The notes under the pieces: model-generated
Database searches by the model: none
The model's input: only the letters and a program-made list of their open reading frames with translations
What the model was told of the DNA's origin: nothing
Shown here: one piece after another, positions 61,005 to 63,697 of the stretch
How positions within the stretch are numbered: the first letter of the stretch is position 1
How the letters are laid out: the number at the start of each line of letters is the position of its first letter
Translations under genes and position numbers: made by a program
From: SAR202 cluster bacterium bin16
GTDB lineage: Bacteria; Chloroflexota; Dehalococcoidia; Lucifugimonadales; Australimonadaceae
DNA length: 64,000 nt
Reading direction: 5' to 3'
NCBI GenBank assembly: GCA_002238425.1
Contig: MPMJ01000005.1
Span: forward strand, 50,523-114,522

Positions 61005-61102
61005 TCGCAGATGCGCCTCGTTCGCCAACCTTTCACCCTCACCCGCCCTCTCCCGAGGAGAGAGGGCGTAGACCGGCTGTCGCCGGAGCGGGGAAGAGGT
61101 GC

Positions 61103-61254
61103 GACCAAGGTGTCCAACCTGCCGGGATTCTGAACCCCTTGGTCGTCGCCGCAGGAGTGAATCGACATGGCGATCTGGACATCTTGAACGCCTTGGTCGG
61201 GGGTGTTTCCAAGGCCATGGCCTGCTTCCCGCGACCAAGGTGTTCAAGATGTCC
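61103..61254. repeat. Two inverted pairs of a GACCAAGG-GTTCAAGAT-TCC unit
   Basis: Pair 1: GACCAAGG at 61103-61110 with CCTTGGTC at 61137-61144. Pair 2: GGACATCTTGAACG... at 61177-61198 against its complement at 61233-61254, 21 of 22 bases pairing around a 34-nt loop that itself holds GGCCATGGCC. The four arms are variants of one unit. Confidence 0.85.
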
Positions 61255-61294
61255 ATCGGAATCACTTTTTTCGTGCCGGAGCCATAGAGCGAAT

Positions 61295-61318
61295 CTATAG
61301 CTGCGCCGTGAGCTATAG
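61295..61318. repeat. CTATAGCT hairpin
   Basis: CTATAGCT (61295-61302), loop GCGCCGTG, AGCTATAG (61311-61318). A third half-site AATCTAT occurs 6 nt further on. AT-rich symmetry in GC-rich DNA is unusual here. Confidence 0.6.
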
Positions 61319-61435
61319 ACGCAATCTATGGGTGCTGCCGGGACGACGGTCATGCAACCAGCGTACGCGGGGATGGGGCGTTCGCGTAAGGGGCTGGTGT
61401 CAGAGAAAGGGATGCGTGACCTGTCGGTCACCCGG

Positions 61436-61465: not shown

Positions 61466-62098
61466 CTACGAAGAGGTCAACTGATCTAGGATGCTGGGCC
61501 AGTCCTTGCCGGAGCCGCCGCCGCTGCTGGCAACGATGGTGCCGTCGCGGGCGATGCCGACGTAGGTCGCCTGTGAGCGGATGTTGAAGGCCTGCTGCGT
61601 GCCCTGCTCGGCCTCGGCGAAGATCCAGTCGTAGCCTTCGTTCCTGGCGAACGAGTCCAGCGCGGCAGCGTTCTCGTTGAAGGCGACATGGATGATCTCG
61701 ACGTCATCCTTGTAGTTGTCGTAGAGGGTGTCCAGCGTGCGAGACTCGCCGCGGCACGTCGGTCACCACGTGGCGAAGAAGTAGAGGAGGACGGCGCGGC
61801 CTGCGGCTGCCGATTCGAGGGTGCCGGTGGAGCCGTCCGGGAGCGATATCGACGCGTTGGTTGCCCGGTCGCCGTGGTCAGAGCCGACGGCGATGTCGGT
61901 GCGCCAGCCTCCGGCGGCCGTGCCGTCCGAGGCGGCGGGCACCGGGGTGGCGGTCGGTTCCGGTTCAGGGGTCGGGGTTGGCTGCGGCACCGGCGTTGCG
62001 GTGGGGTCCGAGCCGCACGCGGTGAGCGTCGCCAGCAGCAGGAGCAGGGCTGCCCCCGCCTTTACGAGGCGTGATATGGATGCGCTGCGCATGGTCAT
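61466..62098 (-). CDS. Candidate selenoprotein 1: thioredoxin-fold lipoprotein with in-frame TGA at residue 112
   Basis: 210 residues if TGA (61763-61765) is read as selenocysteine. Signal peptide with lipobox LTAC near residue 27, a short Thr-Pro linker, then a TlpA/ResA-like thioredoxin domain outside the membrane. The redox motif reads Trp-TGA-Pro-Thr-Cys, where relatives have W-C-P-x-C. The frame after TGA is open and typical: TLDTLYDNYKDDVEIIHVAF, QQAFNIRSQATYVGIARDG, ending at TAG 61466. Same layout as its paralogue at 62.8 kb. Normal TGA stops elsewhere rule out TGA as Trp. Start ATG at 62098; 62092 is an alternative. A conventional reading would call a truncated gene. Confidence 0.85.
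61736..61762 (-). promoter_or_regulatory. Possible SECIS hairpin in candidate selenoprotein 1
   Basis: Directly after the TGA. CGTGC pairs with GCACG (5 bp, 13-nt loop with G second). Alternatively GCGA pairs with TCGC around the loop GTC, with CGT/ACG below. In the second fold the loop G and T fall 18-19 nt after TGA, as in E. coli fdhF. Less regular than in the paralogue. Confidence 0.5.
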
Positions 62099-62115
62099 GC
62101 CGCTCACTCTCGTTA

Positions 62116-62145
62116 AGGCTAGGCGGTGTGCGGAGGGGGTGTCAA
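62116..62145 (-). promoter_or_regulatory. Promoter TTGACA-N18-TAGCCT for candidate selenoprotein 1
   Basis: Minus strand: consensus -35 TTGACA (62140-62145), 18 bp, -10 TAGCCT (62116-62121), 18 nt before the ATG. Indicates the gene is expressed. Confidence 0.6.
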
Positions 62146-62595
62146 TGCGGTGGGGGGACACTCACAGGGATGCGCAGGATGGGATCAAGGGTTCGTGGTC
62201 CGATGGGCTCACCACGAATCGGATGTCGACCCTTTGCCAGCGCCCTCAGTACCTCACCGCGCGCTGAAGCGCGTTGCCCTCTGCCCTTGAGGGGACCTTT
62301 ACGCAACTGCCTTCAGCGCACGCGGTTATATCCCACCCACCCGCACGTACGCCCTTCGGCAGGCTCAGGACAGGCTTGGGGGACACCCCCACGCCCCCGG
62401 CAGAGGGGATCCCCCTCTGCACTCCCTTCAATTCGCAGGCCGCCCCGTGGTTCGACAAGCTCACCATGAGCGGTTTATCTCCGAGAGTATGCTCAACCTT
62501 GAGCGGGATGAGAGTTACGCAAGGGTCTCCTGTAGGGAGAGGGGATCAGGCAAGGGCACCCACAAGGGGTGCCCCTACACCGGGCAGGGGGCGGG

Positions 62596-62615
62596 ATTCC
62601 TGCCTGCGCAGGAAT
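62596..62615. repeat. REP-like 20-bp palindrome, copy 3
   Basis: ATTCCTGC, loop CTGC, GCAGGAAT. The loop is the same as in the copy at 44767. Confidence 0.7.
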
Positions 62616-62721
62616 GGCCCAGGCCACGCTCGCCCTGTACTTGCCAGCCGCGTAACGCAGTAGACGGCAGGACGCGCCCCACCCTTCCCCCCGCCCCGTG
62701 TGGCCTGCCCGGCCACTCTGG

Positions 62722-62741
62722 ATTCCCGCCGGTGCGGGAAT
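62722..62741. repeat. REP-like 20-bp palindrome, copy 4
   Basis: ATTCCCGC, loop CGGT, GCGGGAAT, followed by GACGG as is usual for this repeat class. It lies 84 nt beyond the stop of the second selenoprotein gene. Confidence 0.7.
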
Positions 62742-62824
62742 GACGGACCGTCGGCGTGGCGCCTTTTTCGCAGGAACGGCAGAAAGGGGCAGGAACGACG
62801 GGCAAGTTGGGAATGGCGGAAGTG

Positions 62825-63697
62825 CTAGGACGAGGACTGCAGCGTGTCCAGGACGCCGCGCCAGAAGGACGCGCCATCCGCGCCGTAGCCGCGCCTGTTG
62901 AGGATGGCGCCGTCGCGCCCGATGCCGACCCACGACGATTGCTGGCGGACGTTGTAGTCGCGGACGAGCGATGCAGGACCCTCGGCGAACACTCCGGCGT
63001 AGCCCTGCCGCCCGGCGTGCGCGCCGAGCTGGTCGGCGTTCTGGTTGAAGGCGACAGCCACGACTTCGACATCGCTGCTGTAATCGTTGTAGAGGCTGGT
63101 TAACGTCCGTAACTCGGCGTTACAGGACGGTCACCACGTGGCGAAGAAGTAGAGGATGAGCCCCCTTCCTCCGGCTGCGGACTCGATGGTCGTAGTGGAG
63201 CCGTCCGGGAGGGTCAGGGAGGCGTCGGTTGCGCGTTCGCCGATGCCGGAGCCGGTGGCGACGTCCGTGCGCCAGCCGGTAGCGGGCGCGGGCTCCGGGG
63301 TCGGGGTGTCGGTCGGCTCGGGCGCCGGTGTTGGTGTGTTGGTGGGAGCCGGCCTTGGTGTCGGGGTGTTCGTCGGTTGCGGCGTGGGAGTAGGCGTGTC
63401 GGTTGGTTGCGGCTCCGGCGTCGGAGTGTTGGCGGGCTGCGTTCCCGTAGACGGCGCAGGCGTCGGAGTTGGAGCAGGGGTGTCGGTCGGCTCGGGGGCC
63501 GGTGTTGGCGTGTTGGTGGGCGCGGGTGTGTCGGTAGGCTGTGGTTCCGGCGTGGGGGTGTTCGTCGGGGCCGGAGGGGGCGGGCTGGTTGGCGTTGCCG
63601 TGGGCGGCTCACTGGCGCAGGCGGCGAGCGCGAGGACGAGCAGCGCGGCGGCTGCCGTTCGTGGGAGGCTCCATGCGGATGCGGTGCGCGTGGTCAT
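62825..63697 (-). CDS. Candidate selenoprotein 2: thioredoxin-fold lipoprotein with in-frame TGA at residue 189
   Basis: 290 residues if TGA (63131-63133) is read through. Signal peptide and lipobox LAAC near residue 26, then about 90 residues of Thr-Pro repeats (TPTPEPQPTDTP type) as a stalk, then GWRTDVATGSG and the thioredoxin domain. The redox site is Trp-TGA-Pro-Ser-Cys. After it the frame stays open for 101 codons with normal fold signals (TSLYNDYSSDVEVVAVAFNQ, SSWVGIGRDGAILNRRGYG). It closely matches candidate 1 on both sides of the TGA, and 28 bases around the codon are identical. The TGA is followed at once by a perfect SECIS-like hairpin. Likely role: thiol-disulfide or selenol redox chemistry on the cell surface. 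Confidence 0.88.
63104..63130 (-). promoter_or_regulatory. SECIS-like hairpin in candidate selenoprotein 2
   Basis: Starts 1 nt after the TGA. Lower stem CGTCC/GGACG, one bulged T on the 5' side, upper stem GTAAC/GTTAC and loop GCCGA. All ten pairs are Watson-Crick. A bulged U and a G at the start of the loop are the features SelB recognises in bacterial SECIS elements. The loop begins 13 nt after TGA, slightly closer than in E. coli. Confidence 0.78.

What the first reader, a model, noticed from the sequence alone, without database searches (positions are those of the whole stretch)
61466..63697. Two paralogous exported thioredoxin-like proteins with TGA at the first active-site cysteine
Both genes have a lipobox, a Thr-Pro linker and a TlpA-like domain, and both read Trp-TGA-Pro-(Ser/Thr)-Cys where W-C-P-x-C is expected. 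The frame continues for about 100 conserved codons after TGA in each. The two copies have diverged in protein sequence but keep the TGA, the downstream frame and the second Cys. TGA is used as a normal stop throughout the window, so reassignment to Trp is excluded. Decay would not place the same stop at the catalytic Cys and preserve everything after it. Selenocysteine in UxxC redox motifs is well known, but a tandem surface-lipoprotein selenoprotein pair in what looks like Chloroflexota would be unusual.
Basis: partly seen in the sequence, partly recalled or inferred. Interest (0 to 1): 0.95.

Follow-up and report, generated by a model that had tools for sequence, protein, structure and literature searches.

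The report
Paired selenocysteine lipoproteins of Dehalococcoidia
Two neighbouring genes carry a "stop" codon exactly where a thioredoxin-like protein, predicted to be exported, should have its catalytic cysteine; that codon and an RNA hairpin behind it are kept across many Chloroflexota genomes, so it is very likely read as the rare amino acid selenocysteine, while close relatives' entries in a public protein database end at it.

Summary
Both minus-strand genes have in-frame TGA at the first active-site position (FFATW-U-PTC and FFATW-U-PSC). The window's genome encodes tRNA-Sec(UCA), SelA, SelB and SelD, itself with CAGUAGK. No other UCA-anticodon tRNA was found. I read 104 UGA family genes, 89 distinct domains; all 46 named contigs are titled as Chloroflexota. 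A hairpin 10 nt behind the UGA has all six pairs in 36 of 39 UGA genes but 1 of 11 Cys homologues, with changes on both sides in all six pairs. Eleven database entries of relatives stop at the UGA.

Beyond the finding: (1) the family lacks the cis-proline of CxxC thioredoxin-fold reductases (1 Pro among 88 UGA members); (2) same-strand tandem pairs recur in several clades; (3) three nested Cys members suggest Sec-to-Cys reversions, two in genomes without selA; (4) no DsbD/CcdA or VKOR was found in this genome, so the redox partner is unknown.

The parts
61466..62092 (-). Gene A: predicted lipoprotein with Redoxin/AhpC-TSA (ResA/TlpA-like) domain, UGA at codon 110, ends with TAG
61763..61765 (-). 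In-frame UGA of gene A at the first active-site position (W-U-P-T-C)
61735..61752 (-). Predicted bSECIS hairpin of gene A (GCG-GCG, loop AGUCU, CGC-A-CGC; 16 nt between UGA and loop)
62015..62017 (-). Predicted lipidated Cys (residue 26, ...LTAC) of gene A
   Evidence: sequence; lipobox rule recalled
62825..63697 (-). Gene B: paralogous predicted lipoprotein with long Thr-Pro linker, UGA at codon 189, ends with TAG
63131..63133 (-). In-frame UGA of gene B at the first active-site position (W-U-P-S-C)
63103..63120 (-). Predicted bSECIS hairpin of gene B (ACG-CCG, loop AGUUA, CGG-A-CGU; extended outwards by an A-U and a U-A pair)
63617..63619 (-). Predicted lipidated Cys (residue 27, ...LAAC) of gene B
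   Evidence: sequence; lipobox rule recalled

Best explanation
The two genes have an in-frame UGA, followed by a conserved hairpin, where relatives have a catalytic cysteine, and are very likely selenoproteins: predicted exported lipoproteins in which UGA would be decoded as selenocysteine by SelB and tRNA-Sec. Inferred mechanism: after SelB-dependent insertion the proteins would be exported and lipidated, the Thr-Pro linker holding a ResA/TlpA-like domain off the outer membrane face. There Sec would attack a disulfide, sulfenic acid or methionine-sulfoxide-reductase partner, and the Cys three residues on would resolve it through a selenenylsulfide, as the CxxC pair does in ResA or in the pneumococcal surface lipoproteins Etrx1/Etrx2. 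Shown: the gene structure, the conserved UGA, the co-varying hairpin, the Sec machinery and the lost cis-proline. Predicted: the fold. Inferred: Sec insertion, export, direction of catalysis, substrates. Unknown: the reductant.
Against: No peptide, 75Se or transcript evidence. Gene A's hairpin alone is not exceptional: synonymous-shuffle p 0.16, folding z -0.90. Gene B as a free 38-mer prefers another hairpin (-13.1 kcal/mol) that excludes the conserved one; the conserved one forms (probability 0.96 or more) only when the UGA and the next 7 nt are taken out of the fold. One Cys homologue (L077) also makes 6 of 6 pairs. selA is common in relatives in which I read no such gene too (22 of 30), so co-occurrence alone is weak. 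No DsbD_TM, VKOR or over-cut-off DsbD_2 match in the genome, so the redox cycle is incomplete. The missing cis-proline makes ordinary ResA-type activity less certain.
Confidence: 0.93

Rival explanations
1. The Sec reading is right, but the proteins are not disulfide reductases: without cis-proline the UxxC site would be a peroxide-reducing or metal-handling (Hg, Cu, Fe-S) selenolate site.
Against: Peroxiredoxins have Arg there (PMC2757866); this family has none among the 88 letters read. The CxxCxxE arrangement of ResA is kept (Glu in 100 of 104 UGA rows). ResA remains the best fold match.
Confidence: 0.3
2. UGA is read as Trp or Cys by a suppressor tRNA or by near-cognate read-through, not as Sec.
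For: A Trp codon precedes the UGA; Cys would restore CxxC.
Against: The assembly has 45 tRNA-family matches; ARAGORN called 44 of them and none has anticodon UCA: Trp is CCA only, Cys is GCA only. The sole UCA tRNA seen is tRNA-Sec (one match, L186, was not called; genome 92.6% complete). TGA ends 11 of 30 long ORFs in the window. The hairpin co-varies.
Confidence: 0.03
3. The genes are decaying pseudogenes, or the TGA is a sequencing error.
For: Public gene calls stop at the TGA.
Against: Same codon in 104 genes read; dN below dS after the UGA in 13 of 13 ortholog pairs; paralogues kept in tandem in several clades.
Confidence: 0.01
4. The UGA acts as a regulatory switch: two products, a short lipoprotein when Se is scarce and the full enzyme when Se is present.
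For: The truncated product would keep its lipobox and linker; gene B's mRNA can fold two mutually exclusive hairpins.
Against: The short product lacks most of the domain; among the 42 UGA rows folded, the alternative hairpin was seen in gene B and G005's copy; no expression data.
Confidence: 0.08

Closest known systems
UxxC thioredoxin-fold selenoproteins predicted from sequence: 'Thiol-disulfide isomerase-like protein' (cd02966, 4 Sargasso Sea sequences), 'Redoxin family protein' (PF08534), 'Prx-like thiol:disulfide oxidoreductase' (PF00578), as listed in PMC13188914 and PMC1088965 (passages read)
   Same: UGA for the first Cys of CxxC in a TlpA/Redoxin/AhpC-TSA domain; predicted from UGA/Cys pairs and bSECIS
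NF041057 Rcas_1661 family thioredoxin-like (seleno)lipoprotein (the review files NF041057 under 'DsbG-like')
   Same: By its name a thioredoxin-like (seleno)lipoprotein; the prefix Rcas suggests Roseiflexus, also Chloroflexota (recalled)
   Different: Gene A scores 11.7 bits against a cut-off of 190, over the signal region only; gene B is not listed at E up to 1
ResA (thiol-disulfide oxidoreductase, cytochrome c maturation)
   Different: Sec for first Cys, no cis-Pro, no CcdA/DsbD found in this genome, score far below the ResA model's cut-off (51.1 of 170 bits)
Etrx1/Etrx2 of Streptococcus pneumoniae (PMC3914529, abstract and outline read)
   Different: Cys enzymes (recalled), in separate etrx1 and etrx2 operons with CcdA-Etrx-SpMsrAB2 pathways (headings of the outline); here Sec, adjacent genes, CcdA not found

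Membership tests
Bacterial selenoprotein (UGA-Sec) | In-frame UGA aligned with a redox Cys of homologues, with conserved coding sequence after it | tested here: met
Bacterial selenoprotein (UGA-Sec) | bSECIS hairpin just after UGA: small loop with G in its first two positions, 16-37 nt from UGA | tested here: met
   16 nt between UGA and loop; gene B only when the UGA and the next 7 nt are left out of the fold
Bacterial selenoprotein (UGA-Sec) | tRNA-Sec, SelA, SelB, SelD in the genome | tested here: met
Bacterial selenoprotein (UGA-Sec) | Selenium at the residue in the protein | not testable with these tools
   needs 75Se or mass spectrometry
ResA/TlpA-like thiol-disulfide oxidoreductases | Thioredoxin fold with the ResA/TlpA arrangement, best matched by ResA | tested here: met
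   predicted model; Pfam for gene A: Redoxin 48.9 bits, AhpC-TSA 40.7 bits
ResA/TlpA-like thiol-disulfide oxidoreductases | cis-proline before strand 3 | tested here: not met
   Ala in gene A, Ser in gene B; Pro in 1 of 88 UGA members with a letter there
NCBIfam ResA model NF002854 | Score over curated cut-off | tested here: not met
   51.1 of 170 bits for gene A's domain; 38.8 for gene B
Peroxiredoxin | Arg at the cis-Pro position | tested here: not met
   no Arg in 88 letters; Arg rule from PMC2757866 passages
NF041057 Rcas_1661 (seleno)lipoprotein | Score over curated cut-off | tested here: not met
   11.7 of 190 bits for gene A, not listed for gene B
Thiol-disulfide isomerase-like selenoprotein of the Sargasso Sea list | Homology to the published sequences | not testable with these tools
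   sequences not held; passages only

The most novel reading that the evidence does not exclude
This is a lineage-wide, selenium-dependent redox module on the outer face of Dehalococcoidia cells that runs without DsbD/CcdA and without the cis-proline that CxxC thioredoxin-fold reductases keep: the UxxC site is a remodelled selenolate centre that reduces peroxides or handles metals, and repeated tandem duplication supplies a Sec-to-Sec relay between two lipoproteins.
Probability: 0.2. Interest if true: 0.8.

Novelty: new variant of a known kind. Interest (0 to 1): 0.6.

Why it matters
These proteins are cut short at the active site in eleven public entries found here, so a selenoprotein family spread through many uncultured Chloroflexota is hidden from annotation. 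If confirmed, it links selenium to the cell-surface redox chemistry of Dehalococcoidia/SAR202-type bacteria. It also offers a natural test of why most thioredoxin-fold reductases keep the cis-proline: here its loss goes with Sec across dozens of sequences, and three nested Cys relatives that also lack it are natural controls. The recurrent tandem duplication with Sec kept in both copies is a clean set for asking what Sec is selected for.

Tried and rejected
Suppressor tRNA or reassigned TGA: rejected on the tRNA survey and on TGA as an ordinary stop. Assembly error and decay: rejected. A common operon partner: ORFs around 76 loci were clustered; the two largest clusters look like pieces of the UGA proteins themselves (by eye), and no neighbour cluster is in more than 10 of the 76 loci, so no partner is proposed. 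CcdA/DsbD as reductant: in the own genome PF02683 and VKOR gave none and PF13386 one match below cut-off, whose 257-residue frame reads to me as a nickel/cobalt-transporter type, not CcdA (sequence; family recalled). In relatives PF02683 passes its cut-off in 11 of 59 genomes, 2 of the 29 with a UGA gene I read; six more of the 29 have a match under the cut-off, and none of the 6 genomes of the window's genus has any. Other hairpins like this in the genome: only genes A and B score (58.4 and 57 bits; next 18.7). Single-sequence folding as proof of SECIS: rejected, it is weak for gene A and misleading for gene B. RNAalifold on the mixed alignment found only the three inner pairs, I think because the bulged and unbulged forms are out of register; for the same reason each register alone pairs 75.0% or 83.8% of cells. 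Papers: searches listed none that describes this family in its title or the opening of its abstract (selenoprotein + SAR202: 0 papers); only five papers were opened, four by passages (one also by a section) and one by abstract and outline.

Rows dropped: domains scoring under 60 in the HMM pass; three UGA rows (L081, two of L087; motif FWU(P/T)(F/Y)C, a different AhpC-type family) were left out of the hairpin counts and the tree; L136 (own region fetched again) was left out of totals; rows under 115 residues and duplicates were left out of the tree. Weak TGA-bearing matches (for example G010) were not examined. L055 is counted among the UGA genes although it is frameshifted upstream and probably mis-binned. 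At least four of the 28 tandem loci are the same locus fetched twice (equal contig lengths: L050/L123, L052/L101, L053/L110, L054/L109), and more of the 76 loci repeat; 89 distinct domains is the safer count.

Full report
What is there. Two genes lie on the minus strand, 732 nt apart. Gene B (63697..62825) precedes gene A (62092..61466) in the direction of transcription. Each encodes a signal segment with a lipobox-like end, a Thr-Pro-rich linker and one domain; each has TGA exactly where the first Cys of a W-C-P-x-C motif belongs, and 98 or 101 more codons before TAG. The domains match Pfam Redoxin and AhpC-TSA over their cut-offs when TGA is read as Sec, written C, and are 52% identical to each other. 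TGA ends 11 of 30 mechanical ORFs of at least 250 aa in the window.

Sec machinery. The window lies in a 3.22-Mb, 101-contig genome, 92.6% complete. It has tRNA-Sec with anticodon UCA, SelA, SelB and SelD. SelD carries its own TGA in CAGUAGK. ARAGORN read anticodons for 44 of the 45 tRNA-family matches: none is UCA, Trp is CCA only, Cys is GCA only; tRNA-Sec, outside those 45, is the one UCA seen.

Conservation of the UGA. A search of 59 genomes (own included) found matches in 54. I read 40 regions chosen from that list and the window: 53 domains with a score of 60 or more carry the motif, 42 with TGA (3 of them from a different AhpC-type family) and 11 with Cys codons. A scan of the species-level genome collection with a 38-position pattern (20 fixed letters) gave 46 stretches, all titled Chloroflexi, Chloroflexota, Dehalococcoidia or SAR202. 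They hold 65 family genes, all with TGA (two rows from the own region removed). The pattern itself asks for TGA; eleven distinct sequences there that lack its core letters have TGA too. In all, 104 UGA rows give 89 distinct domains. Contigs of the window's own genus have the same lengths as named Chloroflexi/Dehalococcoidia records, which is how I place the organism. After the UGA, dN is below dS in 13 of 13 within-genus pairs among 8 genes.

The hairpin. Counted from the U of UGA, columns 14-19 pair with 25-30, or with 25-27 plus 29-31 around a bulged base (usually A) at column 28. The loop is AGUUN in 28 of 39 genes and lies 16 nt behind the UGA. All six pairs form in 36 of 39 UGA genes and 1 of 11 Cys homologues; synonymous-codon shuffles predict 3.79 pairs on average where 5.92 are seen. 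Each of the six pairs has changes on both sides; 0 of 500 shuffles reach the covariation score in either register, and sliding the partner by 1-3 columns cuts the score from 0.250 or 0.285 to 0.134 or less. The number of further pair types is less striking (3 and 36 of 500 shuffles as high). An example: where Arg-CGC becomes Asn-AAC, G14 turns to A and its partner C31 to T (alignment). In 47 further distinct sequences 45 have six pairs. Since the search pattern fixes the two innermost pairs, I also held its letters fixed: the outer four pairs form in 34 of 36 against 3.8 expected, and in 11 of 11 against 2.2 where the pattern does not apply. Results against: gene A alone has shuffle p 0.16 and folding z -0.90, and gene B's free RNA prefers another hairpin; the conserved one wins only when the UGA and the next 7 nt are left out, as they might be inside the ribosome (the last clause is inference). 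Spacing and loop fit the bSECIS model given in PMC13188914 (passages).

Sec and Cys forms. In a tree of 98 domains (few columns, some forks open) the Sec/Cys label needs at least 4 changes, of which well-supported branches force 3. Eight Cys rows form a separate canonical group (WASWCxPC). Three Cys rows (L069, L076, L088:4141) lie inside the Sec rows and look like Sec-to-Cys reversions; two of their genomes (G045, G056) have no selA over cut-off, the third (G037) does. selA passes in 27 of the 29 genomes in which I read a main-family UGA gene; G011 (60% complete) and G055 (83%, with a selA fragment) miss it. In the other 30 genomes it passes in 22, so the association is mild.

Tandem pairs. 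28 of 76 loci (window included) hold two UGA genes, always on one strand, with UGAs 744-1368 nt apart; at least four are repeats of the same locus. In the tree the pairs fall in several separate clades, including three in which the two copies are each other's nearest relatives with strong support (L050 100/99, L074 100/99, L133 99/87), so tandem duplication, or gene conversion between copies, recurred. In G003 the copy in gene B's place has gene A's hairpin and active-site DNA but a B-like C-terminal half, which suggests gene conversion.

Mechanism. Most likely the proteins are surface-anchored Sec thiol-disulfide reductases working like Etrx1/Etrx2 (PMC3914529, abstract and outline read). Against a plain version of this: no DsbD_TM, VKOR or over-cut-off DsbD_2 match in this genome, and PF02683 passes its cut-off in only 2 of the 29 UGA genomes, with weaker matches in six more. 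The partner is unknown.

Public annotation and novelty. Eleven of 18 database hits end at ...LYFFATW (14 of the 18 were read). NCBIfam release 20.0 has no model over cut-off among those listed for either protein (the best 25 of 28 shown for gene A). For 54 domains its best match is ResA in all 54; one search shows cut-offs for gene A only, so a named family for some distant member is not excluded. The 2026 review lists related kinds: TlpA-type UxxC, Redoxin UxxC, Prx-like UxxC and DsbG-like NF041057. I therefore call it a new variant of a known kind.

Noticed in passing
L016 (own genome C87), SelD gene: SelD of the same genome is itself a predicted selenoprotein (CAGUAGK).
   Followed up: partly
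L087 (4316-4366, 5051-5101, +) and L081 (4007-4057, -): A second UGA family with motif FWU(P/T)(F/Y)C(K/R)xQ and another kind of hairpin; in L087 two UGA domains lie in one reading frame.
   Followed up: no
L055 (G057:C83, 7.2-kb contig): A contig 83-86% identical to gene A sits in a genome of another family and is frameshifted ahead of the UGA; likely a mis-binned contig.
   Followed up: no
L052 4100-4525: The copy in gene B's place in G003 carries gene A's hairpin and active-site DNA but a B-like C-terminal half, suggesting gene conversion between the pair.
   Followed up: partly
L094, L097, L100, L105, L124, L125, L133: In these loci a gene that reads like release factor 2 (recognised by eye, not by a search), the factor that ends translation at UGA, lies near the UGA genes.
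   Followed up: no
window 63096-63133 (-): The RNA just after gene B's UGA can fold two mutually exclusive hairpins; the alternative (-13.1 kcal/mol) hides the conserved one.
   Followed up: partly
window 61102-61145 and 61275-61338: Two imperfect inverted repeats between gene A and the downstream 2Fe-2S/FAD molybdenum-hydroxylase-type genes.
   Followed up: no
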